Positions 1,725 through 58,361 of a stretch of 64,000 bases of DNA are shown piece after piece. The notes beneath the pieces are model-generated. The model was not told the DNA's origin. It ran no database searches and worked only from the letters and a program-made list of their open reading frames with translations. The stretch's first letter is position 1; every line of letters begins with the position of its first letter. The DNA comes from Nitratireductor indicus C115 (GTDB lineage: Bacteria; Pseudomonadota; Alphaproteobacteria; Rhizobiales; Rhizobiaceae). The translations under genes and the position numbers were made by a program. Location of the stretch: the NCBI RefSeq assembly GCF_000300515.1, contig NZ_AMSI01000005.1:186001-250000 (forward strand). The letters run 5' to 3'.

Positions 1725-1826
1725 TAGAGCATGTTGCAGTCAACTGGGATCACCTGACGTCCGCACAAATGCAAAAGCATGGAGATAGAACGGAGCAGCG
1801 TTTCTGCGAAACGATGAACCGCTCTA
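1725..1826 (-). repeat. Palindromic intergenic repeat, copy 1
   Basis: Read on the minus strand this has the same order as the copies at 18002, 36879 and 58261: an imperfect stem starting AGCGGTTC, a T-rich spacer, then a second stem around CGTCAGGTGATCCCA and TGACTGCAACATGC. It fills the whole gap between the IS (originally the kinase stop) and the heme A synthase stop. Both ends lie in YTAR: TTAG at the ctaA side, where it forms the TAG stop of ctaA, and CTAG at the IS side. It is more diverged than copies 2 and 4. Confidence 0.8.
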
Positions 1827-2948
1827 ATAGATCGCCTCCTCCTCAGCCTGCGGCACGTCACCCGGCATGGGATAAGATCCCTTCGCCGCCCGCCAATGGG
1901 CACAGGCGAAGAAGAGCAGGATAAGCGCAATGCCCTGATGGGTGAGCGCTACATCTATGGGCACAACCATCAAGAGCGTGGTGATGCCGATGGCCGCCTG
2001 AACCACCACCAGAAGAGCAAACAACACGGCACGCCGCGCGTGCGTCGTGCGCGGTTCGGCGCGCAGCACGAAGACCGCCTGCCAGATGGCTAGCGCCAGA
2101 AGCAGATAAGCGCCAAGGCGATGCACGAACTGAACGCTCTTCGGATTCTCGAAGAGATTGATCCAGAAGGGCGACTGGACGAACAGACCGCCGGGCACCA
2201 GCGAGCCGTCCATCAACGGCCAGGTGTTGTAGGTCATGCCGGCCCGCAGGCCCGCCACCAGACCGCCCAGATAGATCTGAAAGAGCACGGCGACGACCAT
2301 CCAGCCAGCAAAACGGCGCACGCCCTCACCGGCCCGACCGCCAGAATGCGGTGCGAGCCCACGCGCCACGAGCGCCGTGGCGGCGAAGATCAGGCAGGCG
2401 ATGGTGAGATGGGTTGCAAGCCGATACTGACTGACATCCACCCTGTCGACCAGGCCGGACGCCACCATCCACCAGCCGACTGCGCCCTGGAAACCGCCGA
2501 GGGCCAGAATGCCCAGAAGCTTGAGCTTCAAGTGGTCTTCCAGGCGTCCCGACAACCAGAAGAAGGCGAGAGGCAGGGCAAAGATGAAGCCGACGCTGCG
2601 GGCCAGAAGCCGATGCGCCCATTCCCACCAGAAAATGGTCTTGAATTCCGACAGGCTCATGCCTTTGTTGACCTGCTGGTATTCGGGAATCTGCCGGTAT
2701 TTGGCAAACTCTTCCTGCCATTCGGCCTCACCGATGGGGGGAATGACGCCGTGGATCGGCTTCCATTCGGTGATCGACAGGCCCGATTCGGTCAGACGGG
2801 TCGCACCGCCCACGAGCACCAGCGCAAAGAGCGTCAGGAGAACGACATACAGCCAATAGCGCACAAGCTTGCGGTTGCGCAGGAGCTGGTCCTGCGCAAC
2901 AGGCGCAGGCGTGGCGGCGGAAACGGTCATGTCCAATGTGGCAACCAT
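1824..2948 (-). CDS. ctaA: Heme A synthase (COX15/CtaA family)
   Basis: 374 aa. It converts heme O to heme A in the inner membrane for aa3-type cytochrome oxidase. About eight hydrophobic segments are present, with the conserved heme-ligand histidines in E-W-A-H-R, A-T-H-L-T, F-V-H-R-L-G and L-T-H-Q-G, and the N-terminal motif G-G-A-T-R-L-T-x-S-G-L-S-I-x-x-W-K-P. This is the alphaproteobacterial/mitochondrial COX15 type. The start is uncertain: an ATG at 2948 was chosen, 2930 is possible, and neither has a strong ribosome-binding site. Its TAG stop is formed at the edge of palindromic repeat copy 1. The small DUF2842 gene is divergent from it. Confidence 0.93.
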
Positions 2949-3093
2949 CTTTGTTGATGTGTTGCAGGTTAGGTGAACCAATGACGCGCATCTTGCAAGA
3001 AGAAGCCGCCTTCGCGCGACAAGCCGCCGCGCCATACGCGCGATTGCATATGCGCCTGCGGCCTTTTATGAAGCGGGGGGAAAGGTTTTTCGA

Positions 3094-3309
3094 ATGCCCG
3101 TACGCCTCAGGAAATTCATCGGCATGGTCGCGCTCGTGGCGCTCGTCATCGTCTATGCAGTGCTTTCAACCGCCGTGGCGGTGGCGCAGCTTGCCGAATC
3201 CGGCCCGCTCGTGCACCTGCTCTATTATCTTCTGACGGGACTTCTTTGGGTCGTTCCGGCCATGGGCATCATCAGCTGGATGGTCGGCAAGCCTGATCCC
3301 AGCGCCTGA
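3094..3309 (+). CDS. DUF2842 small membrane protein
   Basis: 71 aa with two hydrophobic helices (about residues 8-30 and 41-63) and the pattern expected of the alphaproteobacterial DUF2842 family, including the L-L-W-V-V-P-A-M-G-x-I-x-W-M stretch. The family commonly sits next to heme A synthase genes, as here, where it is divergently oriented. The function is unknown. A role near cytochrome oxidase assembly is suggested only by position. Confidence 0.75.
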   Translation: MPVRLRKFIGMVALVALVIVYAVLSTAVAVAQLAESGPLVHLLYYLLTGLLWVVPAMGIISWMVGKPDPSA

Positions 3310-3390
3310 CCGTCGATCATTCCTTCATCTTTTCGGCCTAGCCTGCTTCGACTGCCGCTGCGCGGCGGGCGGAAAAGCGCGCGACACGAG

Positions 3391-4587
3391 ATGAACACCG
3401 AAACCGGAAAGCAGACACAACGGCCTGCCGTCAGCCCGCGAGGGCTTGGCGCAACAATCGCACGCGCCGATGATGCTGGCTTGATGCGCTATCGTGCCGA
3501 CAGCGCGGAGGCGCTTTATATGCCCGCCCAGAGCCCCGAATGGGCGCAAGCCTGGGCATTGGGCGCATCCATGGCAGGCGAGAGCGCGGATATCGTCATC
3601 ATCCGCGTCGCCGACGGGCAAAGGCACATAACGAGCTTTCTTTGCGAAGTGGTACGCCAGGGTCCCTTCAAGGTCGCCCGCTTCCTGGGAGGCAGCCACG
3701 CCAATGGAAATTTTCCACTGCGCGCGCGAACCGAGTTTGCTGTCTCTTCGCAGGAGATCGTTTCGGCCATGACCGAAGCTGCGCGGCGCGAACGGCCCGA
3801 TATCGATCTTCTGATGCTGGAACGCCAGATCGAGAAAATCGAGGGCCTGGACAATCCGCTTCTTGCCTATCCGCACCGGCCAAGCCCGAATGTGTCGCTC
3901 GCCGTCGACCTTGACGGTGGTTTCGATGCCCTTCTTGCCCGCTCCAGCGGAAAGCGCAAACGCAAGCAGAACAGGGCGCAGGTGCGCCGTTTCGAGAGCG
4001 CAGGCGGCTTCCGCCGCATGGCCGCCACCTCGCGGGCTGAAAGCGACGCCCTGCTCGACGCTTTCTTCGCCATGAAGAAAGTGCGTTTCGCAAAGATGGG
4101 CATCCATGACGTTTTTGCACCCGCGGAGGTGAAAAACGCTTTTCGCGAGCTTTTCGGTGCGGCAACCGCTGAAGCCGATCCCAGATTCGTCATGCACGGC
4201 CTGGAGGTGGGGGGAAAGCTTCGCGCCGTGACCGGCTCAAGCCGTATCCGCGACAGGCTCATCTGCGAATTCAGCTCAATCAGCGAAGACGAACTGACCG
4301 ACGCCAGTCCCGGCGCCTATCTGTTCTACGAGAACATTCAGGAAGCCTGTCAGGAGGGGCTGTCCGTCTACGATTTCAGCGTCGGCGACGAATATTACAA
4401 GCGCCTGTGGTGCGATATCGAAACGGTGCAATTCGACACGCTGATCCCCCTCACGACAAAGGGCAGGATGCTTGCGGCGGGGCGCGTTGCTCTTGCCGCA
4501 GCGAAGCGGACCGTTACGTCGAACCCTCGCCTGCTTGCCGCCGCCAAGAGCCTGCGGAGGCGCATCGCATCACTCGGCGGGCAGTAA
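3391..4587 (+). CDS. FemAB/CelD-like GNAT-type acetyltransferase of a polysaccharide locus
   Basis: 398 aa, soluble. The central region (about residues 180-350) has the double-GNAT (Acetyltransf_6, BioF2/FemAB-like) pattern with K-R-K-R-K-x-N-R near residue 190, a conserved D-A-S-P-G-x-Y-L segment near 310 and Y-D-F-S-V-G-D-E-Y-Y-K-R-x-W near 330, typical of CelD-like acyltransferases in bacterial exopolysaccharide clusters. The predicted role is acylation of a surface polysaccharide or its precursor in the cytoplasm. It lies convergently next to the Wzc-like gene. The acyl donor and target cannot be read from sequence. Confidence 0.75.
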   Translation: MNTETGKQTQRPAVSPRGLGATIARADDAGLMRYRADSAEALYMPAQSPEWAQAWALGASMAGESADIVIIRVADGQRHITSFLCEVVRQGPFKVARFLGGSHANGNFPLRARTEFAVSSQEIVSAMTEAARRERPDIDLLMLERQIEKIEGLDNPLLAYPHRPSPNVSLAVDLDGGFDALLARSSGKRKRKQNRAQVRRFESAGGFRRMAATSRAESDALLDAFFAMKKVRFAKMGIHDVFAPAEVKNAFRELFGAATAEADPRFVMHGLEVGGKLRAVTGSSRIRDRLICEFSSISEDELTDASPGAYLFYENIQEACQEGLSVYDFSVGDEYYKRLWCDIETVQFDTLIPLTTKGRMLAAGRVALAAAKRTVTSNPRLLAAAKSLRRRIASLGGQ

Positions 4588-4668
4588 GGCTCTCTTTCGA
4601 GCAGGCGCCGGGGTGATCCCCCTCACCCAGCTTTTGAGGGAGGCCGTGGGCCAGCCCTGGTGGAGAGA

Positions 4669-6822
4669 TCAGGCAGCGTCACGGCCGGGAGGAGCTGGCG
4701 GAAGGGTTACGCCGGAAGGCGTTACCAGCGTGGGGCTTTCAATGCCGTTTGCACGCAACTCCTCAAGCGTCTCCACGGCAATCTCGCCATGATCCGGATC
4801 GAGGACGGCAACCATGACTTCCGTGTCGGCAGCGATAAGCTGACGGATGGCATCCGCATCGGCAGGCCCGCACTCCACGATCACCACATCATAGGCGGCG
4901 CCGAGCGATTCAAGAATGATGGGCAGGCGCGAGGCAGCCCGCATGGCCCGAACCGGGTCGGCGGTTCCGACCGGGATGACATGGGCTTCGGAGAAATGGT
5001 CCGAGTGAATCACATCGGCAAACTGAGCTTCGGAAGCCAGAAGATTGGTAATGCCGGTGAAAGCGATGCTTTCAAGCATGGGAAGAGAGGCAGCGCCCGA
5101 TGAGGTCAGGTCGAGCAAGAGGACGCGCAGGCCGGAATCGGCCACTTCCCGCGCCACGAGAACCGATGCGGCCGCGGCTTCATCCCCCTCAGGCGAAATG
5201 AACAATGCCCGCGAGGCGCCGCCGGAGATGAGCTTGTCGGAGGCCTCTTCCACATCGATCTCGCCGATCTTCGGCACAAGGGGCCGTTCGCTCTCATGCC
5301 GCTCGTCAACCGTGGCATAGCGCCCTGAAAGAAGCGAATTCCGCGCAGGCTTGTCGTCAATTTCGGCGGGCTCGGCGGGCTCCATCGGGACGGCAGGCAC
5401 CGGCTCGACATGATCGCGCTCGTCGCTAGGGCGCATCGCGCGGCCGCTGAAAAGTTCCTGCAACAGCGTGATGACCGCCATGACCAGCAAGGATGCGATA
5501 AAGGCGGCAACGGTGATCGGAACCACCTTCGGGAAATAGGGCTCGCCCGGCGTGATGGCGCGCGAAAAGATACGCACGTCGACAGGCAGGTAATTGCGAT
5601 CGCTGCGCGACACCGCCTCGCGATAGCGGGTCAGATAGGATTCCAGCAATTCGCGCTGGGCAGCCGCCTCGCGCTCCAGCGCACGCAGTTCCACCTGCTC
5701 TTCCTCGGCCTTGGCGGAGACCACCTTCAGGCGGTTCATTTCCGCGGTCAGTTCCGTCTCGCGCCGCCGGGCGGTTTCGGCTTCTGCATCAAGCGCGCCC
5801 AGGACCCGACCGGCCTCCGCGCGAATCTGCCCGTCGATATCGCCAAGCTGCGAACGCAGAGCCCGGATACGCGGGTGATTGCCCAGAAGCGTGGTGGAAA
5901 GATCGGCGATCTCCGCCTGCAATTCTGCTTGGCGCTCGCGCAATCTCTGGATCACCGGAGAAGCAAGGACCTCGGGCTGGGAATCCACTGGTGCGCCGCT
6001 CGACAGCGCAGACCGCACCGCCGACGCCTTTGCCTCGGCATCGGCCCGATTGGCGCGCATGCGCGACAGTTCGCTCGACATTTCCGCAAGCTGCTGCGTG
6101 GCAAGCACCGTATTGTTCTGGCCAAGAAGGAGATCGGATTGCGCGCGGTATTCGGCGACGCGGGATTCAGCGTCCTTCACGCGCTTGCGCAAATCCTCGA
6201 TCTCGGGCTCCAGCCACTGGGTGGCGCTGTTGTTGGATTGCAGCTTGGCCTCGCCTTGCATGGCGACATAGGCATCAGCCACCGCATTGGCGACTTCTGC
6301 GGCAAGGCGCGGGTCCTGCGAGGAGAATTCGATCACGATCACGCGGGAATTCTCGACACGATAGACGGTCAGGCGCTCGCGAAAAGCGCGCAGCACCCGC
6401 TCTTCCTGGGGAGCATTGCCGGGATCGCTCTTGAGGCCGGTCATCACCATGACCCGGGTGGCCAGCGAACCATCGCCACCGGAAAATTCCTCACGGTCGG
6501 CAAGCTTGAGCTTGTCCACCACCTGGGCCAGAAGCTCGGTGGAAGTCAAAAGCTCCACCTGGCTCGCCACCCCTTCCCCGTCAATATTGTTCTGATCGCC
6601 GCCCGTGCCGACCTGCGGCCGGGTAAAGACGGATTCTCGCGTTTCGATGAGCAGTCGGGTCTCGGCCTTGTATTTCGGCGTCGCCATGGACAACAGCGCG
6701 AACACAAGCCCCGTTATGACCAGCGCAGCGAGGAGAAGGCGCAGCCATTTGCGTCGGATGCCGGCGAAAAGCCGCCCGAGATCGACATCCACATCGCCCG
6801 CTGCCATGCTGCCATTGCTCAT
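4669..6822 (-). CDS. Wzc/ExoP/GumC-like polysaccharide co-polymerase with degenerate kinase domain
   Basis: 717 aa. Order: cytoplasmic N-terminus, TM1 (about 25-48), Wzz domain, long coiled coil (about 205-400), a proline-containing Wzz motif before TM2 (about 431-453), then a cytoplasmic BY-kinase-like domain from about residue 540. The family controls chain length and export in Wzx/Wzy pathways. Where BY-kinases have a Walker A motif (G-x-G-K-S/T), this protein reads S-P-E-G-D-E-A-A-A-A-S with no Lys, and there is no C-terminal tyrosine cluster, so autophosphorylation is unlikely. It is divergent from the Wza-like gene across a 325-bp region. The ATG at 6822 has GGGAG upstream. Confidence 0.88.
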   Translation of the reverse strand: MSNGSMAAGDVDVDLGRLFAGIRRKWLRLLLAALVITGLVFALLSMATPKYKAETRLLIETRESVFTRPQVGTGGDQNNIDGEGVASQVELLTSTELLAQVVDKLKLADREEFSGGDGSLATRVMVMTGLKSDPGNAPQEERVLRAFRERLTVYRVENSRVIVIEFSSQDPRLAAEVANAVADAYVAMQGEAKLQSNNSATQWLEPEIEDLRKRVKDAESRVAEYRAQSDLLLGQNNTVLATQQLAEMSSELSRMRANRADAEAKASAVRSALSSGAPVDSQPEVLASPVIQRLRERQAELQAEIADLSTTLLGNHPRIRALRSQLGDIDGQIRAEAGRVLGALDAEAETARRRETELTAEMNRLKVVSAKAEEEQVELRALEREAAAQRELLESYLTRYREAVSRSDRNYLPVDVRIFSRAITPGEPYFPKVVPITVAAFIASLLVMAVITLLQELFSGRAMRPSDERDHVEPVPAVPMEPAEPAEIDDKPARNSLLSGRYATVDERHESERPLVPKIGEIDVEEASDKLISGGASRALFISPEGDEAAAASVLVAREVADSGLRVLLLDLTSSGAASLPMLESIAFTGITNLLASEAQFADVIHSDHFSEAHVIPVGTADPVRAMRAASRLPIILESLGAAYDVVIVECGPADADAIRQLIAADTEVMVAVLDPDHGEIAVETLEELRANGIESPTLVTPSGVTLPPAPPGRDAA

Positions 6823-7147
6823 GCAAACGCTCCCAACGTTACATCGTGGCTGCGAACGCTATGCTTACAGGCCAGACACGATGCACGAAATCAAATCACC
6901 CGCCCGCGCAAGGACAGGCGCGGGCACTCAGGCTCGACCGGCACGGTAAACAGTTATAGTAACCACACGGTTAAGATGCAGCCGGCCTGCGCCCGCCCCC
7001 GGTGCGCCCCCAGGGTGCCACCGGCCCCTTCCCAAAGCTTATGGCCGCATCAGCGCTGGCTTTACCGGGCATTAACCCTAACGGAACGATAAGGGACAGG
7101 TACAGCCCTCATGGGGCGCTGATGACGTCAGAGGTTTGCAGTCGGTC
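6823..7147. promoter_or_regulatory. Divergent intergenic region between Wzc-like and Wza-like genes
   Basis: 325 bases with no credible gene. It must hold promoters for both directions. TATAGT at 6955-6960 resembles a -10 element on the plus strand and lies in the small dyad GTTATAGTAAC (6953-6963). A TTAACC-type motif occurs at about 6971 on the minus strand and at 7073 on the plus strand. No convincing -35 partner was found, so promoter placement is tentative. Confidence 0.35.
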
Positions 7148-7711
7148 ATGAAGAAAACCGTTTCCATTTTGCCGGCCCTTGTCGCAATTGCGGCGCTTGC
7201 CGGCTGTTCCGGTTATCGCCCCGCGCCTGCGGCCTTCCATGAGGCCCTCTACCAGCCCTATGTGCTCGACGCGGGCGACAATCTGCGCATCACCGTGTTC
7301 GACCAGGAAAACCTGACCAACACCTATAGCGTCGACCAGTCGGGCTATGTCGCCTTCCCGCTCATCGGGTCGGTGCCCGCGCGCGGCAAGACCACGAAGG
7401 AGGTCGAACAGGGCATAGCGGCGCGGCTGCGCCAAGGCTATCTGCGCGACCCCGACGTTTCGGTGGAAGTCGAGCGCTATCGTCCGGTCTTCATCATGGG
7501 CGAGGTCGGAGCACCGGGGCAATATTCCTATGTGCCCGGCATGACCGTCCAGAAGGCGGTGGCGGCGGCAGGCGGCTACAGCCCGCGCGCGAGCCAGGAA
7601 AGCGCCGATATCACACGCACCATCAACGGCAAGGTGATGACCGGCCGCGTGGTGACCTCCGACCCGCTTCTTCCCGGCGATACGGTTTATGTGCGCGAGC
7701 GACTTTTCTAG
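7148..7711 (+). CDS. Wza-type polysaccharide export lipoprotein
   Basis: 187 aa. A lipoprotein signal peptide ends at L-A-G-C, with the lipidated Cys near residue 20. A polysaccharide export (Poly_export/Wza N-terminal) domain follows, with L-D-A-G-D-N-L-R-I-T-V-F, then an SLBB-like segment (F-I-M-G-E-V-G-A-P-G-Q-Y). It is shorter than E. coli Wza (about 380 aa), like the rhizobial short export proteins. It is the outer-membrane partner expected for the divergent Wzc-like protein. Similar proteins belong to unipolar polysaccharide loci. An ATG at 7148 is preferred over a TTG at 7136. Confidence 0.88.
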   Translation: MKKTVSILPALVAIAALAGCSGYRPAPAAFHEALYQPYVLDAGDNLRITVFDQENLTNTYSVDQSGYVAFPLIGSVPARGKTTKEVEQGIAARLRQGYLRDPDVSVEVERYRPVFIMGEVGAPGQYSYVPGMTVQKAVAAAGGYSPRASQESADITRTINGKVMTGRVVTSDPLLPGDTVYVRERLF

Positions 7712-7744
7712 AGATTTCGACCTTTCTTGCCCGGACAGGCTTCC

Positions 7745-8875: not shown

Positions 8876-8937
8876 TCGTCCCGAAATATTTTCTTCAAAT
8901 TCCTTAAACACCGGAAACAAGTCTTTTATGAAAACTT

Positions 8938-8949
8938 CCGGTTAACCGG
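8938..8949. promoter_or_regulatory. Perfect 12-bp palindrome upstream of the phosphoglycosyltransferase gene
   Basis: CCGGTTAACCGG lies 67 bases before the ATG at 9017, inside a comparatively AT-rich stretch (8880-8945) that is unlike the surrounding GC-rich DNA. The position suits an operator or promoter element for the gene at 9017. The factor is unknown. The core GTTAAC resembles a CtrA half-site, but a second half at the proper spacing is not evident. Confidence 0.4.
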
Positions 8950-9016
8950 TTCCCGAAACAGAACGTTAGCGCGACCAATATAATCTGCCACCAACAATCC
9001 AGGGGCAGACAGTTTC

Positions 9017-11921: not shown

Positions 11922-11998
<77 letters not shown>

Positions 11999-17864: not shown

Positions 17865-17890
17865 AAAAAAGCCGGGCACGAATGCCCGGC
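17865..17890 (-). terminator. Minus-strand terminator downstream of hppA
   Basis: GCCGGGCA/TGCCCGGC with a four-base loop, followed on the minus strand by six Ts (17870-17865). It lies about 210 bases beyond the hppA stop, past palindromic repeat copy 2, and faces the bamE terminator. Confidence 0.8.
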
Positions 17891-18001
17891 TGCGCGGTGT
17901 AAAATGCTGGCACGCTTACAGTTCAGGTTGTTGCACCCGCCCTCATCCCCCCGCGGGGAGAAGGTAAGGTGAAGCGCGGGCGCAACTGAAACCTGAATAT
18001 C

Positions 18002-18107
18002 CTAGATCGGCTCACCGTTTCACGGAAATCCTGAACCGATCTATCTCTTTGTTTTTCCGCATTTATGCAGACATCAGGTGATTCCACCTCACTGCAAAAT
18101 GCGCTAG
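18002..18107 (+). repeat. Palindromic intergenic repeat, copy 2
   Basis: 106 bp bounded by CTAG at both ends (18002-18005 and 18104-18107). Stem 1 is GATCGGCTC paired with GAACCGATC around an inner GTTTC/GAAAT. A T-rich spacer (CTCTTTGTTTTT) follows, then stem 2 with TCAGGTG-ATTC-CACCT and flanking TGCAG/CTGCA and GCATTT/AAATGC arms. The right-hand CTAG contains the TAG stop of hppA, which reads on the minus strand. Confidence 0.9.
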
Positions 18108-20236: not shown

Positions 20237-20601
20237 TGCCACTCTATCCCTTGATTTCGGCCCGCGACTGAAACCCCTCCCGGGCCACGCTGAAAAAGAC
20301 CGTCGGCATTCGCGCCCCTCCCGGTCTAATTGTCGCAGCTTGGGCGATGCGATAACGCAACGTCAAGGACCAGTTCGGGAATTTGCCCCGCTTTTGGGTG
20401 ATCGCAATCCGCCGTTTCGGACCGAAATCAGGGAATTCAAGGGTTACCCGGCTTTGGAAAACGGCAAAATGGCGCCGGATGAGCTGGATCCGGCACAAAC
20501 GGGACCAAGCGCCCGACGCCCCCAAAGCCCCAGGATGCTGATCTTCCTGTTTTCCGGATTCATGCGCACGTCAGGTAAAATCGGCTGACTGCGGAAACGT
20601 T
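20237..20601. other. Intergenic region upstream of hppA
   Basis: 365 bases between the MFS stop and hppA. No supported gene is seen; overlapping open frames look like noise. The part nearest the MFS gene (20537-20605) holds degenerate repeat copy 3. The hppA promoter should lie here on the minus strand; TTGACG at about 20369-20364 is a possible -35, but no good -10 at standard spacing was found. Confidence 0.5.
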
Positions 20602-20605
20602 CTAG
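20537..20605 (+). repeat. Palindromic intergenic repeat, copy 3 (degenerate)
   Basis: Only the right part aligns clearly: GATCTTCCTGTTTTCCGGAT, then CATGCGCACGTCAGGT, GCTGACTGC and a terminal CTAG at 20602-20605. The first stem is absent or too diverged to recognise. The CTAG contains the TAG stop of the MFS gene, the same placement as the other copies. Confidence 0.65.
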
Positions 20606-21819
20606 GCGACGGCCCTGCTGCGGCGCCTCAGGGCCTGCACGCCAAGTGCGGCAAGGCAGAAGATCGAAACCGGCAGGACGATGATGGCCAGCATGTCCCA
20701 GCCATAGGCATTGTAAATCTGGCCGGACATGAGCGAAGCAACCGCCGTGGTCGAGAAGAGAATGAAATCGTGCACGCCCTGCACGGCGCTCTTTTCGGAT
20801 GCATGATAGCAATCGGCCACCATGGCCGTCGCACCGATGAAGCCGAAATTCCATCCTACGCCAAGCAGGATAAGCGCCGTCCAGAACTGCCACAACGCAA
20901 TGCCCGACAAGGCAACGACGGCACAACCGATGAGAAGCAGGAGACCGGTGGCGACGATGGTCTCCTTGCCAAAACGGGCAATCAGCCTGCCGGTGACGAA
21001 GCTTGGCGCGAACATGGCCATGACGTGCCAGGAAATGCCCAGCGTCGCCTCGTCCGGTGTGAACCCGCAACCGACCATGGCCAGCGGCGCGCCGGTCATG
21101 ACGAAGCTCATCAGGGCATAGGCTGCAACGCCGCATAAAAGCGCCACCAGAAAGCGCGGCTGCGTCATGATGGCGAGAAGCGGGCGGGCGGGCTGATGAT
21201 CGTCGAGCTTGGCTGAGGGCGCATCCTTCGACGCGCGCAGCAGCGACAGAACGGCTGCCCCCAAAAGGCCGATCACGATCAGTGAGGCAAAAGCACCCGC
21301 AAACATGATGGGGGCGAAAAGATCGCGCGTATGGATCACGATCTGGGGACCTATGATGGCCGCGAAGACGCCGCCGCCCAGAACCCACGATATGGCCCGT
21401 GCCTTGAAGTCGGACGGTGCGTTGTCGGCTGCGGCAAAACGGTATTGCTGGAGAAAGGCGTTGCCCATTCCCACCAGCAGCAAGCCAAGGGCAAAGAGCC
21501 AGAAATTGGCCTGGAACAGCGCCAGTGCGGCCACGAAACCACCGCAGGCTGTGACGAGCCCTCCCGACATGAGACTGTTGCGCCGGCCTATGGCCCTTGT
21601 CAGAGCGGCGGCGGGCAGAGCGCCCACGGCAACCCCGATGTTGAAACCGGTAACCGGTGCCGTTGCCAGGGATTTGTCGCTGCCCAGCAGATAAAAACCC
21701 GCAAGCCCGCCCATGGAAATGGCGATGGGAGCCGCCGATCCGACCACGGCCTGCGAGACAGCCAGAATGAGCGCGGTGCGCTTTGCTTCCCTGTAAAGAT
21801 CGCCGCGCTCCGCCAACAT
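20602..21819 (-). CDS. Major facilitator superfamily transporter
   Basis: 405 aa from the ATG at 21819, with about 12 hydrophobic helices and an R-A-I-G-R-R-N-S-L-M-S-G-type loop 2-3. A polar cytoplasmic loop near the middle (D-A-P-S-A-K-L-D-D) separates the halves. It resembles YnfM/arabinose-efflux-like MFS proteins of unknown substrate. It begins two bases after the nusB stop with AGGG upstream, so it is probably translated from the rib-nusB transcript. In many rhizobia, as I recall, thiL occupies this slot. The TAG stop lies in the edge of repeat copy 3. Confidence 0.82.
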   Translation of the reverse strand: MLAERGDLYREAKRTALILAVSQAVVGSAAPIAISMGGLAGFYLLGSDKSLATAPVTGFNIGVAVGALPAAALTRAIGRRNSLMSGGLVTACGGFVAALALFQANFWLFALGLLLVGMGNAFLQQYRFAAADNAPSDFKARAISWVLGGGVFAAIIGPQIVIHTRDLFAPIMFAGAFASLIVIGLLGAAVLSLLRASKDAPSAKLDDHQPARPLLAIMTQPRFLVALLCGVAAYALMSFVMTGAPLAMVGCGFTPDEATLGISWHVMAMFAPSFVTGRLIARFGKETIVATGLLLLIGCAVVALSGIALWQFWTALILLGVGWNFGFIGATAMVADCYHASEKSAVQGVHDFILFSTTAVASLMSGQIYNAYGWDMLAIIVLPVSIFCLAALGVQALRRRSRAVA

Positions 21820-34881: not shown

Positions 34882-35104
34882 CAGGAATATCAGGGCGCAG
34901 GCAGGCCTCAACGCCGCGATTGTTTCGCCGTAATTGTACGGCATAAAGAGGTTCCGCCGCGCAGCATACTCGTTCAGGGTGCCTTGCTTATGCGCGAGCG
35001 CGCCATGTGTCGAAGGAACGCCTTGTTTTGTTATTTTGCGCGTTCGTGCGAGCGCCGGCTGGCCCGCACGACTGCAGAATGCCCAGGAGCACCACCCGAC
35101 AGAA

Positions 35105-36862: not shown

Positions 36863-36882
36863 CTGACTGCAAAATGCCCTGG
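36863..36882 (+). repeat. Remnant of a tandem palindromic-repeat copy
   Basis: CTGACTGCAAAATGCCCTGG equals the right end of repeat copy 4 (36965-36984) apart from TAG changed to TGG. It directly abuts copy 4, sharing the CTGG junction. It is best explained as the residue of an adjacent copy in the same orientation. Confidence 0.75.
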
Positions 36883-36984
36883 ATCGGTTCACCGTTTCAC
36901 GGAAACCCTGAACTGATCTATCTCTTTGTTTTTCAGCATTTATGCAGACGTCAGGTGATTCCACCTGACTGCAAAATGCCCTAG
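36879..36984 (+). repeat. Palindromic intergenic repeat, copy 4 (best preserved)
   Basis: Stem 1: GATCGGTTC (36882-36890) with GAACTGATC (36910-36918) and inner GTTTC/GAAAC. A T-rich spacer lies at 36919-36934. Stem 2: GCATTT (36936-36941), TGCAG, GTCAGGTG, loop ATTC (36958-36961), CACCTGAC, TGCA, AAATGC (36974-36979). The terminal CTAG (36981-36984) contains the TAG stop of parC on the minus strand. Confidence 0.92.
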
Positions 36985-50990: not shown

Positions 50991-51002
50991 GCGGTTCCTC
51001 CC

Positions 51003-52211: not shown

Positions 52212-52280
52212 AGTGGCTTCGCAAGGTCATCAGATGCTTCGGGTGGGCCGTGAAACCCGAGGGCAACATTGCCATCGCAG

Positions 52281-52320
52281 GTTCCGGCATGGATCCTCGG
52301 GGCAAGCCCGAGGATGACGA
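52281..52320 (+). repeat. Dispersed hairpin repeat, copy A
   Basis: GTTCCGGCATGGATCCTCGG followed by GGCAAGCCCGAGGATGACGA. Within it CCTCGGG and CCCGAGG form a stem across a short loop. The same unit, inverted, is at 52377-52420. Such C-C-C-G-A-G-G-A-T-style repeats are familiar from many alphaproteobacterial intergenic regions. Confidence 0.8.
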
Positions 52321-52376
52321 ATTGTATGAACGAATGCTGCCATCGCGACGGCTGGAGGATGACCTGAACGCCCTTG

Positions 52377-52420
52377 TCGTTAGTCATCCCCGAACTTGAC
52401 CCGAGGATCCATGCCGGAAC
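52377..52420 (-). repeat. Dispersed hairpin repeat, copy B (inverted relative to copy A)
   Basis: On the minus strand it begins GTTCCGGCATGGATCCTCGG, identical to the start of copy A, and continues GTCAAGTTCGGGGATGAC; the inner stem is thus partly decayed. The two copies are 56 bases apart and could pair over their whole length. They lie between the convergent monooxygenase and metC genes. Confidence 0.78.
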
Positions 52421-52460
52421 GGCTCAGCTACACGAGCTTCTCCCGCCGGTTCCCTCTCAC

Positions 52461-53630
52461 TCAATGCCCGGCAGCGGCCAGGCCACGTTCGAGATCGGCC
52501 TTGAGGTCTTCCACATTCTCCAGACCGATCTGCAACCGGACGACCGGACCTTCCTGCGGCGCATGCGCCACCTGCCGATCGTCGAGCTGCACATGGACGG
52601 CAAGGCTTTCATAACCGCCCCATGAGTAACCAAGGCCGAATATCCGCAGCGCATTGAGGAAGGCGTGGGCCTTCTTCGCATCGCCGCCGTCCAAAACGAT
52701 GGAAAACAGGCCGCTCGCCCCCTTGAAGTCGCGCTTCCAAATCGCGTGGCCAGGATGGGATTCGAGCGCGGGATGCAGCACACGCGCCACCCCCGCCCGC
52801 CCTTCCAGCCATCGGGCAATGGCAAGCGCGCTTTCCTGATGGCGTTCCAGACGCACGCCCATGGTCCTGAGCCCGCGCAGAACCTGATAGACATCGTCGG
52901 GCGCAGCGCACATGCCGAGCGCGCCATGGCAGGCGAGCAGCTGTTTCCAGGTGGCTTCGTTGGCCGAGACGGTGCCCAAGAGAATATCGGAGTGTCCGCC
53001 GGGATATTTCGTGGCGGCCTGAATGGAAATGTCGACCCCGAAGTCCAGCGGACGGAAGAAAAGCGGTGTCGCCCAGGTGTTGTCGAGCATCACCACGGCT
53101 CCCCCCTTGTGCGCCGCTTCGACGATGGCGGGTATGTCCTGCATCTCGAAAGTGCCCGAACCGGGCGCCTCGGTGAGTACAACTTTGGTATTAGATTTCA
53201 TCAAATCCGCGATCCCCGCACCCACCATGGGATCGTAATATGTCACCTCGACGCCGAGGCGGACGAGCATCGTATCGGCAAAATGCCTGGTTGGATTGTA
53301 GACCGAATCCACAATCAAAACGTGGTCTCCAGACGACAAAAACGCGAGCAGCGGAACCGTCACCGCGGCGAGGCCCGAGGGCACGAGGATGGTTCCGGCA
53401 GCCCCCTCCAATTCGTTCATCGCGTCGGCCAAGGCATCAGAAGTCGGCGTTCCGCGTGTGCCGTAAGTGTATCTTTGCTTACGGGAAGCCATGGTTTCCG
53501 CGTCCGGAAACAAAACCGTCGAGGCGTGCACGACAGGCGGATTGACGAAGCCGAAATAGTCGTGCGGGTCGTTGCCGATATGCGCGAGCCGGGTGTTGGC
53601 TCCCGCGTTCATTTCGATTTTCTTGCTCAT
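52461..53630 (-). CDS. metC: Cystathionine beta-lyase
   Basis: 389 aa from the ATG at 53630 with GAGGAA upstream. A Cys/Met metabolism PLP enzyme: Y-T-Y-G-T-R-G-T-P-T near residue 55, D-N-T-W-A-T-P near 185, PLP Lys in A-A-T-K-Y-P-G-G-H-S-D near 206. Cleaves cystathionine to homocysteine in methionine synthesis. Adjacency to aapJQMP is as in Rhizobium leguminosarum. Divergently transcribed from aapJ. Confidence 0.92.
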   Translation of the reverse strand: MSKKIEMNAGANTRLAHIGNDPHDYFGFVNPPVVHASTVLFPDAETMASRKQRYTYGTRGTPTSDALADAMNELEGAAGTILVPSGLAAVTVPLLAFLSSGDHVLIVDSVYNPTRHFADTMLVRLGVEVTYYDPMVGAGIADLMKSNTKVVLTEAPGSGTFEMQDIPAIVEAAHKGGAVVMLDNTWATPLFFRPLDFGVDISIQAATKYPGGHSDILLGTVSANEATWKQLLACHGALGMCAAPDDVYQVLRGLRTMGVRLERHQESALAIARWLEGRAGVARVLHPALESHPGHAIWKRDFKGASGLFSIVLDGGDAKKAHAFLNALRIFGLGYSWGGYESLAVHVQLDDRQVAHAPQEGPVVRLQIGLENVEDLKADLERGLAAAGH

Positions 53631-53946
53631 GATTCCTCGATGCATGCTTGCGCGACGGGCGATTTTTCGGGGGCAAGGTCAGGGGGCATACCCGGCCGGA
53701 AGCCGGAGCGGATGGAACGGTATTGTCCGTCCGGCGTCAACCGCTGGCCTGCCTGGAGCAAGCGTCATTCGCTCTTGACCCAAACCGATTTATGCCCTTC
53801 GATACTGCTAGTGCGTGGGAGAGGAAGCGCGTGTCCGCCTGCCCTGAGAGGCATCGCCCGGTTCGGGTGGAAATGAGACATTCGCCTGCTTCCGCATGAC
53901 GATCAGGGGATAAGCCCTAAAACATAAAGATCAAAGGGTTCATGAC
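53631..53946. promoter_or_regulatory. Divergent intergenic region metC-aapJ
   Basis: 316 bases without a credible gene. It should carry the aapJQMP promoter. TTGACC at 53775-53780 resembles a -35, with GATACT about 20 bases later as a poor -10. No clear NtrC or sigma-54 (GG-N10-GC) promoter was found by eye, although aap operons are nitrogen regulated in rhizobia. Confidence 0.35.
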
Positions 53947-54975
53947 ATGAAGACAATCTACAAGGCGTTGCTCGGTTCGGCAGTGGTGGCGTGGATGGCT
54001 GCGCCCGCAGCAGCGGCGACGCTCGACGACGTGAAGGCCAAGGGCCACGTCCAATGCGGAGTGAGCACGGGTCTGGCCGGTTTCAGCGCGCCGAACGACA
54101 AGGGCGACTGGACGGGCCTCGATGTGGATTTTTGCCGCGCGGTCGCGTCCGCGATCTTCGATGATCCAAATGCCGTTCAGTTCACACCGCTTTCCGCAAA
54201 GGAGCGCTTCACCGCCCTGCAGTCCGGCGAAGTCGACATTCTCTCGCGTAACACCACATGGACCATCAGCCGCGACACCGCGCTTGGCCTGAATTTCGCG
54301 GGCGTGACCTATTATGACGGCCAGGGCTTCATGATCAATTCGAAGAAGCTCCAGGGGATCAATTCCGCATTACAGCTTTCGGGAGCGGCGGTCTGCGTGC
54401 AGGCCGGAACGACGACCGAGCTCAATCTGGCCGATTACTTCAAGGCCAACAACATGGAGTACAATCCGGTCGTCTTCGAGAAGCTCGAAGAGGTCAATAC
54501 CGCCTATGATTCGGGACGTTGCGACGTTTACACGACCGACCAGTCCGGCCTCTATGCCATCCGCCTCACGCTCTCCAGCCCCGATGACCATATCGTGCTT
54601 CCGGAGATCATCTCCAAGGAGCCGCTCGGCCCGGTGGTGCGCCATGGCGACGACCAGTGGTTCGACATTGCCAAATGGGTCTATTACGCGCTGCTGAATG
54701 CGGAAGAGCTCGGCATCAACCAGGGCAATGTGGAAGAAAGCCTCAAGTCCGACAAGCCGGAAGTCCGCCGCCTGCTTGGCACGGAAGAAGGTGGCAAACT
54801 CGGCACCGATCTCGGCCTGACCAATGACTGGGTCGTGCGGGTGATCAAGCATGTGGGCAATTACGGCGAGATTTTCGAGCGCAATGTCGGCGCCGAGAGC
54901 CCGCTGAAGATTTCACGCGGCATCAATGCCCTGTGGACCAAGGGTGGCCTGCAGTACGGCATGCCGATCCGCTGA
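53947..54975 (+). CDS. aapJ: General L-amino acid ABC transporter, substrate-binding protein
   Basis: 342 aa. A Sec signal of about 23 residues (cleavage after A-A-A) precedes a bacterial solute-binding family 3 domain: V-Q-C-G-V-S near 36, G-L-D-V-D-F-C-R-A-V-A, L-Q-S-G-E-V-D-I-L-S-R-N-T-T-W, G-V-T-Y-Y-D-G-Q-G-F. This is the AapJ type, which captures many L-amino acids in the periplasm. A strong hairpin separates it from aapQ. Confidence 0.95.
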   Translation: MKTIYKALLGSAVVAWMAAPAAAATLDDVKAKGHVQCGVSTGLAGFSAPNDKGDWTGLDVDFCRAVASAIFDDPNAVQFTPLSAKERFTALQSGEVDILSRNTTWTISRDTALGLNFAGVTYYDGQGFMINSKKLQGINSALQLSGAAVCVQAGTTTELNLADYFKANNMEYNPVVFEKLEEVNTAYDSGRCDVYTTDQSGLYAIRLTLSSPDDHIVLPEIISKEPLGPVVRHGDDQWFDIAKWVYYALLNAEELGINQGNVEESLKSDKPEVRRLLGTEEGGKLGTDLGLTNDWVVRVIKHVGNYGEIFERNVGAESPLKISRGINALWTKGGLQYGMPIR

Positions 54976-55012
54976 TCGCGCACAAGCCGCTGTATAACGG
55001 ACCAACCGATGC

Positions 55013-55040
55013 GTGAAAGGCGGGCATTTCCGCCTTTCAC
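55013..55040 (+). promoter_or_regulatory. Perfect hairpin between aapJ and aapQ
   Basis: GTGAAAGGCGG (55013-55023) pairs perfectly with CCGCCTTTCAC (55030-55040) over a six-base loop, no T-tract. It lies 38 bases after aapJ and ends 20 bases before aapQ. Such structures after binding-protein genes commonly protect the upstream mRNA or stop part of transcription so that the binding protein is made in excess. Confidence 0.75.
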
Positions 55041-55060
55041 CATCCACATTGAGGATAGCC

Positions 55061-56251
55061 ATGGCCACCCGGCAAACCATTGCGGAGGGCGCGGCGCCTC
55101 GCGTGCCGCTCTTTTATGATCCGCGTGTGCGAGGCATCGCATACCAGTTACTGGTTTTCATAGGCCTGTTCGCCTTTGTCTACTGGATCATCGGCAATAC
55201 AGCCGCCAATCTCCAACGGGCCAATATCGCCTCGGGCTTCGGATTTCTCGAAGGACGAGCCGGCTTCGACATCGGCGACAGCCTGATCGAATATTCTTCC
55301 GATTCCACCTATGGCCGCGCTCTGGTCGTGGGTTTCCTGAACACATTGCGCGTCGCCTTCTTCGGCATCATCACGGCCACGATCGTCGGTTTTCTCGTTG
55401 GCATCGGGCGCTTATCGAAGAACTGGCTCATCAACCGCATCTGCCTCGTCTATGTCGAGGTGTTCCGCAACATCCCGCCATTGCTCGTCATCTTCTTCTG
55501 GTATTTCGGCGTTCTCTCGGTGCTCCCGTTGCCGCGTGATTCCATCGGCCTGCCCTTCGGCTCCTATCTCAATAGCCGCGGCTTCTATTTTCCGAAATTC
55601 CTATGGGGGGACGGCTCCTGGCTCGTGCTTCTGGCGCTCGGTCTTGCGCTCGTCTTCTCCTGGTTCGTGAGACGCTGGGCGTACAAACGACAGATGGCGA
55701 CGGGTGAACCGTTCCCGGTGCTTTGGACGTCGGTGGCGCTCATCATCGGGTTGCCCCTCCTGGCCTTCGTCGTCACCGGCTTTCCGCTGAACTTCGAGTT
55801 CCCGGCGCTGTCGACCTTCAACCTGCGCGGCGGTGTGCAGATCCGGCCGGAGTTCCTGTCCCTCTATCTGGCCCTCTCCTTCTACACGGCGGCCTTCATT
55901 GCCGAGATTGTGCGGGCGGGCGTGCTCGGGGTAAGCCGGGGACAGACGGAAGCGGCCCATGCGCTTGGGCTGCGCAACGGCCAGTCATTGCGCCTGGTGG
56001 TGATCCCGCAGGCTCTGCGCATCATCATTCCGCCGCTCACCAGCCAGTATCTCAACCTGACCAAGAACTCGTCGCTGGCCGTGGCCATCGGTTATCCGGA
56101 CCTGGTGGCGACAGGGGGAACGACCCTCAACCAGACAGGTCAGGCCATCGAAATCGTGGCCATCTGGCTTATCGTCTATCTGGGCCTCAGCCTTGCGACA
56201 GCCGGCCTGATGAACTGGTACAATGCGCGCATGGCGCTGGTGGAGCGATAA
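55061..56251 (+). CDS. aapQ: General L-amino acid ABC transporter, permease
   Basis: 396 aa from the ATG at 55061 (GAGGAT upstream). About eight membrane helices with a HisM/GlnP-type domain. The EAA loop reads [24 protein letters not shown] near residue 310. The long N-terminal extension and large periplasmic loop are typical of AapQ. Works with AapM and AapP. Confidence 0.95.
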
Positions 56252-56252
56252 G

Positions 56253-57410
56253 ATGCAAGAGCACGATCTTTCCTTCGTCCGCGCCGAAATGGCAGCCGTC
56301 GAGCCGCCGCCTACGGCAGATCGCGGGCTTGTCTCCTGGATGCGGCGCAACCTTTTTGCCAGCGCGACCGATACGATCTTCACCATTATCGGCATCGCCC
56401 TTGTCGTGATGATCGTTCCTCCCCTCATCCAATGGGCGTTCATCAATGCCCAATGGACGGGCACCGACCGGTCGGCCTGTGCCACCGTTGCGCAGGGCGG
56501 CAACCAACCTGATGGCTGGTCCGGCGCGTGCTGGGCCTTCGTTGACGCGAAGTTCCAGCAGTTCATGTTCGGCCGTTACCCGGTGGATGAGCGCTGGCGC
56601 GTCTACCTGGCGGCTTTCCTGTTCGTGATCCTGCTCGTTCCGATGCTCGCACCGCGCGTGCCGCGCAAAGGGCTCAATGCGATCCTGCTCTTCATCGTCT
56701 TTCCGATCGTGGCCTATTTCCTGCTCGTGGGCGGTGCCTTCGGCCTCGTGAGGGTCGCAACCCCGCTTTGGGGCGGCCTGATGGTGACACTGGTTCTCGC
56801 CTATGTCGGCATCACCGTTTCGCTGCCGCTCGGCGTTTTGCTCGCACTCGGGCGGCGCTCGCACATGCCCGTGGTGAAGCTTGTCTGCGTTGTCTTCATC
56901 GAGACAATACGCGGCATACCGCTCATCACAGTGCTCTTCATGGCGAGCGTGATGCTGCCGCTGTTCCTGCCGCCAGGGACGAGCTTCGACAAGCTGTTGC
57001 GGGCCCTTATCGGCGTGGCGCTGTTTGCCTCGGCTTATATGGCGGAAGTTATCCGCGGCGGCCTGCAGGCCATTCCGAAAGGCCAGTACGAGGGCGCCGA
57101 CGCCCTCGGCCTGAGCTACTGGAAGAAGATGAACCTCGTGGTGCTGCCGCAGGCGATCAAGCTCGTCATTCCAGGCATCGTGAACACATTCATCGGCCTA
57201 TTCAAGGATACAAGCCTCGTCTACATCATCGGCATGTTTGATCTTCTGGGCTCCGTGCGCCAGAACTTCTCGGACGCCAACTGGGCCTCGCCCCAGACAC
57301 CGATCACGGGACTGGTCTTTGCCGGCTTCGTGTTCTGGCTGTTCTGCTTCGGCATGTCGCGCTATTCAATATTCATGGAACGCCGGCTCGATACCGGCCA
57401 CAAACGATAG
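56253..57410 (+). CDS. aapM: General L-amino acid ABC transporter, permease
   Basis: 385 aa from the ATG at 56253, two bases after the aapQ stop. N-terminal polar tail, then about eight helices. The EAA-type loop reads [17 protein letters not shown] near residue 285 and ends with [12 protein letters not shown] periplasmic insert (about 65-130) with two Cys residues is present as in AapM proteins. It forms the membrane channel with AapQ. Confidence 0.95.
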
Positions 57411-57460
57411 GGTCACCGGACCCGGCAAATGACAGGGTCAATGGACCCAAGGGGAACCCA

Positions 57461-58264
57461 ATGGTTGCAGAAAACACCGTCAAGGCCGACGAAATCCAGG
57501 CCAACCGGGGCAAGATGCAGATCTCGGAGACCGATGTGGCGATCGAGCTCATCGGCATGAACAAATGGTATGGCGACTTTCATGTGCTGAGGGATATCAA
57601 TCTCAAGGTCATGCGGGGCGAACGCATCGTCGTTTGCGGCCCTTCCGGCTCCGGTAAGTCGACCATGATCCGCTGCATCAACCGGCTGGAGGAACACCAG
57701 AAGGGGCGGATCATCGTCGATGGCATCGAGCTCACCAACGATCTCAAGAAGATCGACGAGGTGCGGCGCGAAGTGGGGATGGTGTTCCAGCACTTCAACC
57801 TGTTTCCGCATCTTACAATTCTGGAAAACTGTACGCTCGCCCCGATCTGGGTGCGCAAGACTCCCAGGAAGGAAGCTGAAGCCACGGCAATGCATTTTCT
57901 GGAACGGGTGCGCATTCCCGAACAGGCGAACAAGTATCCCGGCCAGCTTTCGGGAGGCCAGCAGCAGCGCGTGGCAATCGCCCGCGCCCTGTGCATGAAC
58001 CCGCGCATCATGCTTTTCGACGAACCCACTTCCGCGCTCGATCCCGAAATGATCAAGGAAGTGCTCGACACGATGGTCGATCTCGCCGAGGAAGGCATGA
58101 CCATGATCTGCGTCACCCACGAGATGGGCTTTGCGCGTCAGGTCGCCAACCGCGTCATCTTCATGGATCAGGGACAGATCGTCGAGCAGAACACGCCCGT
58201 CGAGTTCTTCGACAACCCCCAGCACGAACGCACCAAGCTGTTCCTCAGCCAGATATTGCATTAG
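57461..58264 (+). CDS. aapP: General L-amino acid ABC transporter, ATP-binding protein
   Basis: 267 aa. Walker [10 protein letters not shown] (60-68), Q-loop F-Q-H-F-N-L-F, signature L-S-G-G-Q-Q-Q-R near 164, Walker B I-M-L-F-D-E-P, His switch T-H-E-M-G-F-A. It powers AapQM. An N-terminal 25-residue extension precedes the usual start of the domain. Its TAG stop at 58262-58264 is the first TAG of repeat copy 5. Confidence 0.95.
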
Positions 58265-58361
58265 ATCGGTCACCGTTTCACGGAAACCCTGAACCGATCT
58301 CTTTGTTTTTCTGCATTTATGCAAACGTCAGGTGGTTCCGCCTGACTGCACAATACTCAAG
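58261..58361 (+). repeat. Palindromic intergenic repeat, copy 5
   Basis: Starts with TTAG holding the aapP stop, then stem 1 (ATCGGTCACC ... GAACCGATC, inner GTTTC/GAAAC), T-rich spacer CTTTGTTTTT, and stem 2 GCATTTATGCAAACGTCAGG with CCTGACTGCACAATAC. It ends with CAAG, a decayed CTAG. A five-base deletion in the spacer (the TATCT after GATC) distinguishes it from copies 2 and 4. Confidence 0.88.

What the first reader, a model, noticed from the sequence alone, without database searches (positions are those of the whole stretch)
1725..58361. A double-hairpin repeat family whose CTAG/TTAG edges supply stop codons of the flanking genes
Five copies (1725-1826, 18002-18107, 20537-20605, 36879-36984, 58261-58361) share order and sequence: stem 1, T-rich spacer, stem 2. 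Most ends lie in CTAG/TTAG. In every copy the edge tetranucleotide overlaps the TAG stop of an adjacent gene: ctaA, hppA, the MFS gene, parC and aapP. The kinase at 54 originally had the same relation at the other end of copy 1. Either end of the repeat can touch the gene, so this is not simply a terminator with fixed orientation. It suggests insertion at YTAR sites at gene ends, selection for tolerated insertions, or a role in 3' processing. Similar-sized Bru-RS elements are known in Brucella; the stop-codon placement is what I find striking.
Basis: partly seen in the sequence, partly recalled or inferred. Interest (0 to 1): 0.75.

Follow-up and report, generated by a model that had tools for sequence, protein, structure and literature searches.

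The report
Mobile repeats docked on stop codons
A mobile repeat of about 105 bases in a Nitratireductor bacterium often lands exactly on the stop codon of a gene and leaves the protein unchanged, because its favoured landing site contains a stop codon and its own first base completes one; the type of repeat is known, the landing rule seems not to have been reported.

Summary
Of 108 copies examined, 56 have the stop codon of an inbound gene exactly on an edge TA (57 stops, 52 of them TAG); random placement in the same gaps predicts about 4. The base before the stop, which belongs to the gene, is C or T in 56 of 57. Empty sites in sister species point to insertion into Y-TA-R with TA duplicated; in the cleanest case TAA became TAG and the gene ends at the same codon. 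The target TA is the first two bases of the old stop and the element's terminal G the third. Given a YTAR target and loss of harmful insertions, 37-47 of 101 copies should sit on stops anyway, so stop-seeking machinery is not required. An IS5-type insertion sequence with TA duplication sits in the edge of window copy 1, as IS711 does in Brucella Bru-RS1. The repeat resembles the Bru-RS / CIR / RIME repeats of alphaproteobacteria; sequence identity to them was not tested. Against: 6 of 16 empty sites lack TA, most element-free orthologues end in TGA, and an edge bias is unexplained. Novelty of the rule is provisional: the founding papers could not be read.

The parts
1725..1826 (-). repeat copy 1, minus strand; left edge TA (1826-1825) is in the ctaA stop TAG; right edge TA (1725-1726) is shared with an IS
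   Evidence: R1 97.9 bits at 1723-1828; sequence
18002..18107 (+). repeat copy 2; both edges CTAG; right edge overlaps the hppA stop
   Evidence: R1 119.8 bits; DNA fold z -6.75
20528..20606 (+). repeat copy 3, degenerate, mainly stem 2; right edge CTAG overlaps the MFS stop
   Evidence: R1 20.8 bits; alignment to copy 4
36879..36984 (+). repeat copy 4; left edge CTGG, right edge CTAG overlaps the parC stop; what looks like the remnant of an older right end (ctgactgcaaaatgcc) abuts on the left
   Evidence: R1 128.2 bits; sequence
58261..58361 (+). repeat copy 5; left edge TTAG is the aapP stop; right edge reads CAAG
   Evidence: R1 101.7 bits; sequence
1824..1826 (-). ctaA (COX15-CtaA, PF02628) stop TAG on the edge of copy 1
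18104..18106 (-). hppA (PF03030) stop TAG on the right edge of copy 2
20602..20604 (-). MFS gene (PF07690) stop TAG on the right edge of copy 3
36981..36983 (-). parC (PF00521, topoisomerase IV/gyrase subunit A family) stop TAG on the right edge of copy 4
58262..58264 (+). aapP (ABC transporter ATPase, PF00005) stop TAG on the left edge of copy 5
881..1724 (+). 844-bp IS with a DUF4096 (IS4/5 family) transposase domain, TA on both sides (879-880, 1725-1726), imperfect ends (12 of the first 17 bases identical), in the edge TA of copy 1
   Evidence: PF13340; boundaries
879..881 (+). stop TAG of the kinase gene (PF04655): TA plus the first G of the IS
17870..17891 (-). intrinsic-terminator-like hairpin with T tail downstream of hppA, beyond copy 2

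Best explanation
The repeat is a non-autonomous, MITE-like mobile element of the Bru-RS/CIR/RIME kind. It inserts into Y-TA-R and duplicates the TA, leaving Y-TA-[GATC or GAGC ... two hairpins ... GCTC]-TA-R. YTAR reads as YTAR on both strands, and TAR in frame is always a stop (TAA or TAG). Both ends usually begin with G read inward (99 of 108 left, 92 of 108 right). A copy landing on a gene's stop therefore rebuilds it, usually as TAG, at the same codon, whichever end faces the gene. The protein does not change. Copies in coding sequence or promoters are lost and YTAR is scarce (window GC 61%; CTAG 17 seen, 48 expected), so stops are a large share of the sites where a copy can survive. Shown: TA on both sides of a site that has it once when empty (10 of 16 sites keep TA in an empty relative), stop position kept, TAA to TAG in one clean case, the C/T rule before the stop, stop share near YTAR availability. 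Inferred: mobilisation in trans by an IS5/IS427-type transposase; loss of harmful insertions; decay of edges that are not stops.
For: 56 of 108 copies on stops; 52 of 57 edge stops TAG against 121 of 557 background stops. C/T before the edge stop in 56 of 57, against 86 of 197 background TAA/TAG stops and 266 of 360 TGA stops. Empty site L278: flanks aligned without gaps at 92% in two sister species, GCA-TAA empty, GCA-TAG occupied, TA on both sides; RefSeq ends the gene on that TAG. L293 is a second TAA-to-TAG case at 79% identity. 9 of 12 alignable stop sites have TA in at least one empty relative (read by eye). YTAR null: 37.0 (unweighted) or 46.8 (weighted) of 101 expected, 56 seen. Only 4 of 108 copies lie between divergent genes. 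Seen again in G003 (14 of 30 copies), in four other species (14 of 30, not all independent), and with RefSeq gene calls in 5 of 11 annotated plasmid copies. IS711 duplicates TA at YTAR and inserts in Bru-RS1 (passages of PMC2266754 and PMC3163539).
Against: TA is absent from every empty relative at 6 of 16 alignable sites (control YTAR sites at stops and in gaps: 19 of 86; p=0.21), most clearly at L273 (CTAG against CGGG/CGAG in four species at 88-97% identity) and L284. Element-free orthologues of edge genes mostly end in TGA (45 of 67 rows); matched Y-TAG control genes do too (23 of 34), but against all TAA/TAG controls, those preceded by A/G included, edge genes have fewer TAA/TAG orthologues (p=0.017). 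Stops stay over-used against YTAR availability (P 0.0001 unweighted, 0.04 weighted). Only 31 of 66 right and 41 of 93 left edges that are not stops read TA. Own copies favour the right edge (41 to 14, p=0.0004), G003 does not (6 to 10). The gene-caller-free test is clear in the own genome and the other four species, weak at right edges of G003 (8 of 30 against 13 of 60). No transposase with matching ends was found.
Confidence: 0.73

Rival explanations
1. Insertion rewrites the stop: the element carries its own TA/CTAG ends and replaces whatever dinucleotide was at the site, so TGA stops become TAG at the moment of insertion.
For: Element-free orthologue rows of edge genes: TGA 60, TAG 16, TAA 8. 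The TAA/TAG share of orthologues of edge genes (0.28) is like that of TGA genes (0.23, p=0.49) and below all TAA/TAG controls (p=0.017). Empty sites without TA at L273, L284, L335, L339, L349, L361.
Against: Matched Y-TAG control genes show nearly the same share (0.33; all Y-TAA/Y-TAG controls 0.41, p=0.19), so fast stop turnover may suffice. 10 of 16 empty sites do have TA. C/T before the stop is enriched even over TGA stops (56 of 57 against 266 of 360).
Confidence: 0.14
2. The repeat is kept at gene ends because it works there, as a transcription terminator or as a 3'-end hairpin protecting mRNA.
For: Hairpins show changes on both sides in 27 of 33 pairs, 146 cells against 50.1 in shuffles, on an alignment fitted to the model. 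Convergent gaps are common (54 of 108). Orientation bias in the own genome.
Against: No terminator is called inside the two copies scanned. A terminator-like hairpin of hppA lies beyond copy 2, and G001, G002, G005 and G009 show one after hppA without the repeat (by eye). The orientation bias is absent in G003. Stem maintenance is also expected if movement needs the hairpins. No expression data were at hand.
Confidence: 0.08
3. A dedicated stop-codon homing mechanism places the element, for example a transposase that recognises terminating ribosomes or gene 3' ends.
For: Stops are used 1.2-1.5 times more than YTAR availability predicts; 41 to 14 edge bias in the own genome.
Against: The target tetranucleotide explains most of the enrichment; 52 of 108 copies are not on stops.
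Confidence: 0.04

Closest known systems
Bru-RS1 / Bru-RS2 of Brucella (Halling and Bricker 1994; known here only from passages of later papers)
   Same: 103-106 bp, palindromic, intergenic; IS711, which duplicates TA at YTAR, inserts into Bru-RS1
   Different: Sequences not compared (no Brucella sequence fetched); no note on stop codons in the passages seen
CIR, CcrM-associated intergenic repeats of Caulobacter and Brucella (Chen and Shapiro 2003, as summarised in PMC2229807, passages)
   Same: About 110 bp, two inverted repeats joined by a linker, GANTC at the loop of one stem, 5'-TA-3' at the termini
   Different: PMC2229807 marks the target-site duplication with a question mark; here it is TA. 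GANTC sits in the stem-2 loop of 45 of 108 own copies, 22 of 30 in G003, 18 of 30 in the four-species set. Sequences not compared
RIME elements of rhizobia (Osteras et al. 1995, not held)
   Same: Repeated rhizobial intergenic mosaic elements (passages of PMC2573895 and PMC2245857); the present family occurs in Sinorhizobium and Rhizobium plasmids and swaps stem modules
   Different: RIME1 sequence not available; its size and two palindromes are recalled
Other bacterial MITEs: Correia/NEMIS, RUP, ERIC/RU-1, Coxiella QMITE2
   Same: Short, non-autonomous, stem-loop forming; most with TA at the termini
   Different: Two separate hairpins and only a short shared end; in the passages seen, RU-1 or QMITE2 at a gene's 3' end removes the stop or extends the protein, the opposite of what is seen here
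IS5/IS427-type insertion sequences such as IS711
   Same: TA duplication (window IS; IS711); the window IS also begins with G at both ends
   Different: Carry a transposase; the ends of the window IS and of L447 are unlike those of the repeat; the ends of IS711 were not checked

Membership tests
CIR / Bru-RS type repeat | about 100-110 bp with two inverted repeats and a linker | tested here: met
CIR / Bru-RS type repeat | GANTC at the loop of one stem | tested here: met
   GATTC in the stem-2 loop in 45 of 108 own copies, 0.04 expected per 27-base stretch; absent in the other 63
CIR / Bru-RS type repeat | 5'-TA-3' at the termini | tested here: met
   consensus YTA...TAR; single copies have often lost it
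CIR / Bru-RS type repeat | sequence homology to the published Bru-RS or CIR sequences | not tested
   Chen and Shapiro 2003 not held; no Brucella or Caulobacter copy was fetched
RIME1 | occurs in rhizobia, intergenic, mosaic | tested here: met
   plasmid copies in Sinorhizobium, Rhizobium, Martelella, Nitratireductor, Shinella; alternative stem modules
RIME1 | identity to the published RIME1 sequence | not testable with these tools
   paper not held
MITE | target-site duplication | tested here: met
   TA at both edges with single-copy empty sites, cleanest at L278; 10 of 16 sites have TA in an empty relative, 6 do not
MITE | terminal inverted repeats shared with an autonomous IS | tested here: inconclusive
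   seven DUF4096 loci in four genomes; ends read for two (window IS, L447) and unlike the repeat; other IS families not searched
REP/REPIN | two inverted copies of one hairpin | tested here: not met
   the two stems differ in sequence
REP/REPIN | partner RAYT gene | not tested
   no search made
intrinsic terminator | stem followed directly by a T run | tested here: not met
   two copies scanned

The most novel reading that the evidence does not exclude
A transposable element that writes its own stop codon: insertion at a gene's terminal codon replaces whatever stop was there, TGA included, with an element-borne TAG, so the element can settle on gene ends regardless of the target dinucleotide and without changing the protein.
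Probability: 0.14. Interest if true: 0.85.

Novelty: new member of a known kind. Interest (0 to 1): 0.55.

Why it matters
It offers a simple, testable rule for why a compact genome tolerates a hundred or more such repeats: the target tetranucleotide contains a stop codon and the element's end restores it. It proposes a TA target duplication where a 2007 review had a question mark for CIR repeats, and it may put Bru-RS, CIR and RIME-like repeats and YTAR-targeting insertion sequences under one landing rule. It also warns that TAG stops next to such repeats can reflect insertion and not codon preference.

Tried and rejected
Rfam at gathering thresholds: only a tRNA in the window. Terminator role: none called in the two copies scanned. 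Conversion of TGA to TAG looked strong at first (32 of 35 orthologue rows TGA in the window); it weakened against matched Y-TAG controls (p=0.19) but not against all TAA/TAG controls (p=0.017), so it is kept as a rival. Autonomous partner: seven DUF4096 loci in four genomes; a terminal-repeat scan of these loci gave a TA-flanked pair in L447 only, with ends unlike the repeat. Other transposase families were not searched.

Rows dropped: for the 16 empty sites (TA judged by eye) I left out L281 (no TA at either edge), L282, L350 and L358 (junction gapped or unclear); I kept L283, L293 and L299, which have TA at one edge only, and sites such as L300, L337 and L361 with gaps near the junction in some rows. 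The 86 control sites leave out YTAR in coding sequence (15 of 56 with TA in a relative). Of 57 edge stops, 31 had orthologue rows, one of them a paralogue match at 60% identity. Rows differing by more than one residue at the C-terminus were dropped. In the YTAR null, 4 divergent-gap copies and 3 unassigned copies, none on a stop, were left out. Of 31 plasmid records hit, 14 were fetched; H6, H11 and H20 had no annotation.
Full report
WHAT IS THERE. The window lies in a 4.99-Mb genome (G000:C5:186001-250000). The genus is inferred to be Nitratireductor: the nearest named hppA relative is an uncultured Nitratireductor (89% identity), and the same-genus genome G002 carries a copy at the position seen in the N. 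kimnyeongensis plasmid NZ_CP078144. The repeat is about 105 bp: stem 1, a T-rich linker, stem 2. A covariance model of 10 copies (R1) gives 148 hits at E<=0.1 in the own genome (150 candidates scored, a few hits overlap on opposite strands). In a search of 41 genomes, the own one included, 23 carry it. On 104 aligned copies, 27 of 33 pairs show changes on both sides and 146 cells do, against 50.1 in shuffles (the alignment was fitted to the model, which favours it). Copies differ in stem 1, and in other genera also in stem 2, by whole modules, so the element is a mosaic.

ENDS. In 108 copies with flanks the consensus is Y-TA-G... at the left and ...C-TA-R at the right. The left Y is C in 73 and T in 25 of 108; the right R is G in 68 and A in 35 of 108. 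Read inward after the TA, the left end is GATC in 45 and GAGC in 30, the right end GAGC in 65 of 108. Edges that are not stops have often lost the TA: 31 of 66 right and 41 of 93 left ones still have it.

STOP CODONS. Genes were called with a codon-usage scorer trained on the window. An inbound gene's stop lies exactly on the edge TA at 42 right and 15 left edges, 56 copies of 108. Within 30 bases, the next most frequent offset at right edges occurs three times. The stops are 52 TAG, 4 TAA and 1 TGA; background stops in the same loci are TGA 360, TAG 121, TAA 76. Placing each copy at random within its own gap predicts 3.8. Without gene calling, in-register frames open for >=150 codons occur at 67 of 216 edges against 21 of 432 shifted frames. 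The base before the stop is C or T in 56 of 57, against 86 of 197 TAA/TAG and 266 of 360 TGA background stops. That base belongs to the gene, so this is target preference.

IS IT MORE THAN THE TARGET? Outside copies, the fetched loci hold 83 YTAR sites on stops, 322 in gaps and 229 in coding sequence. YTAR sites on stops are 19 of 42 in convergent gaps and 47 of 173 in tandem gaps; copies on stops are 34 of 53 and 22 of 48, and 0 of 4 in divergent gaps. The expected total is 37.0 of 101 with equal weights (simulated P 0.0001), or 46.8 when weighted by the tetranucleotides of the 37 copies with both edges intact (P 0.04); 56 were seen. The weights come mostly from stop-site copies (27 of 37), so the truth lies between. 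Target identity plus loss of harmful insertions explains most of the pattern; a 1.2-1.5-fold excess remains.

EMPTY SITES. Joined flanks were aligned to sister genomes. At L278 both empty relatives read GTC GCA TAA GGA with flanks aligned without gaps at 92%; the occupied allele reads GCA TAG AGC... and ...CTC TA AGGA. TA is duplicated, TAA became TAG, the protein is unchanged, and RefSeq ends the gene on that TAG. L293 is a like case at 79% identity. Judged by eye, TA is present in at least one empty relative at L277, L278, L283, L291, L293, L299, L300, L337, L340 and L345, and absent at L273, L284, L335, L339, L349 and L361: 10 of 16 (stop sites 9 of 12, others 1 of 4), against 67 of 86 control YTAR sites at stops and in gaps (p=0.21). 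The six are the best support for the rewriting rival. At L273 four species at 88-97% identity read CGGG or CGAG where the occupied allele reads CTAG.

ORTHOLOGUES OF EDGE GENES. For 31 of 57 edge stops, orthologous ends were found in same-genus genomes, mostly G003, G008 and G010: 77 of 102 rows end at exactly the same residue, 91 of 102 within one. Element-free rows read TGA 60, TAG 16, TAA 8; rows with a copy nearby but not on the stop TGA 8, TAG 4; rows with a copy on the stop TAG 5, TAA 1. Against G003, G008 and G010 alone, 12 of 28 edge genes have a TAA/TAG orthologue (mean share 0.28). Controls: Y-TAA/Y-TAG genes 9 of 18 (0.41), Y-TAG alone 6 of 14 (0.33), A/G-preceded TAA/TAG genes 10 of 13 (0.72), TGA genes 11 of 35 (0.23). 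Edge genes do not differ from the matched Y-controls (p=0.19) nor from TGA genes (p=0.49), but do differ from all TAA/TAG controls pooled (p=0.017). Stop turnover is fast; conversion at insertion is neither shown nor excluded.

OTHER GENOMES. In G003 14 of the 30 best copies sit on stops (6 right, 10 left edges, two at both), although the gene-caller-free test there is weak at right edges (8 of 30 against 13 of 60) and better at left ones (12 of 30 against 10 of 60). In G001, G002, G004 and G009 it is 14 of 30 fetched copies (59 matches listed), several of them the same ancestral site; the test gives 16 of 30 against 1 of 60 and 12 of 30 against 6 of 60. Of 14 plasmid copies fetched, 11 have annotation and 5 have a RefSeq stop exactly on the edge: N. 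kimnyeongensis, N. thuwali and S. americanum CCGM7 (TAG), Nitratireductor sp. OM-1 and S. meliloti LMB1 (TAA). Six do not.

THE INSERTION SEQUENCE IN COPY 1. Between the kinase gene (PF04655) and copy 1 lies an 844-bp IS with a DUF4096 transposase domain, flanked by TA at 879-880 and 1725-1726; its ends share 12 of the first 17 bases and begin with G. The kinase stop is again TA plus G. Passages of PMC2266754 and PMC3163539 report that Brucella IS711 (842 bp) duplicates TA at YTAR and inserts in Bru-RS1. The relation here is alike.

FUNCTION. No terminator is called in copies 2 and 4, while a terminator-like hairpin for hppA lies beyond copy 2 at 17891-17870. G001, G002, G005 and G009 have such a hairpin soon after hppA and no repeat there (by eye); G003 has a copy about 10 bases after its hppA stop. 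The repeat seems to have come in between stop and terminator. In the own genome 41 copies touch a stop only with the right edge and 14 only with the left (p=0.0004); G003 does not show this. I have no explanation.

LITERATURE. PMC2229807 (passages) summarises CIR repeats: about 110 bp, two arms and a linker, GANTC at a loop, TA at the termini, target duplication marked '?', mobility mechanism unclear. The present family matches these features; GATTC is in the stem-2 loop of 45 of 108 own copies. PMC2267715 lists Bru-RS (passages); PMC2573895 and PMC2245857 name RIMEs as rhizobial repeats (passages). Ten paper searches, seen as listings, and passages of the papers opened show no report of stop-codon placement for this kind of repeat; for other MITEs the passages seen tell of lost stops or changed C-termini. 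Halling and Bricker 1994 was not looked up; Osteras 1995 and Chen and Shapiro 2003 are not held. The negative is therefore weak.

VERDICT. A real and striking regularity, explained mainly by a target that contains a stop codon and an element end that completes it. Known kind of repeat, apparently new rule.

Noticed in passing
window 881-1724: IS with a DUF4096 transposase inserted in the edge TA of copy 1, next to a gene of the aminoglycoside/hydroxyurea kinase family (PF04655); described only
   Followed up: partly
L187 (G010:C163), after the hppA stop: A different palindromic sequence (core GATCTTGGATTGAATCAATCCAAGATC) follows a TAG stop at the gene end where the own genome has copy 2; several repeat families may dock on the same stop
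   Followed up: no
G010 genome; query bases 2508-2584 (right flank of the copy in L356): A separate sequence of about 77 bp with some thirty hits listed in G010, abutting a copy of the present family in G003
   Followed up: no
copy 4 left flank (window 36864-36879); left flanks of C17:74392, C1:323726, C9:114060, C1:104985: What look like remnants of an older right end abut the left edge, as if new copies insert in the edge TA of old ones
   Followed up: no
left flanks of C3:266209, C18:60480, C5:330922: Similar flanks (GAGAYATGCGYTAG), perhaps the end of another repeat family used as target
   Followed up: no
108 own copies: The stem-2 loop carries GATTC, a GANTC methylation site, in 45 of 108 copies
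   Followed up: partly
108 own copies; G003: The right edge touches stops far more often than the left (41 to 14) in the own genome but not in G003 (6 to 10)
   Followed up: partly
L010 13271-13349, L027 8141-8248, L028 9388-9494: Weaker R1 hits (44.8, 30.6, 30.1 bits) near hppA in Mesorhizobium, Rhizobium and Bradyrhizobium: 3 of 33 named loci searched
   Followed up: no
window 34973-35088 (+): Weak R1 hit (17.7 bits), possibly a decayed copy
   Followed up: no
own-genome edges: Non-stop left edges often read CTGG or CCAG instead of CTAG, as if CTAG decays by transitions
   Followed up: no
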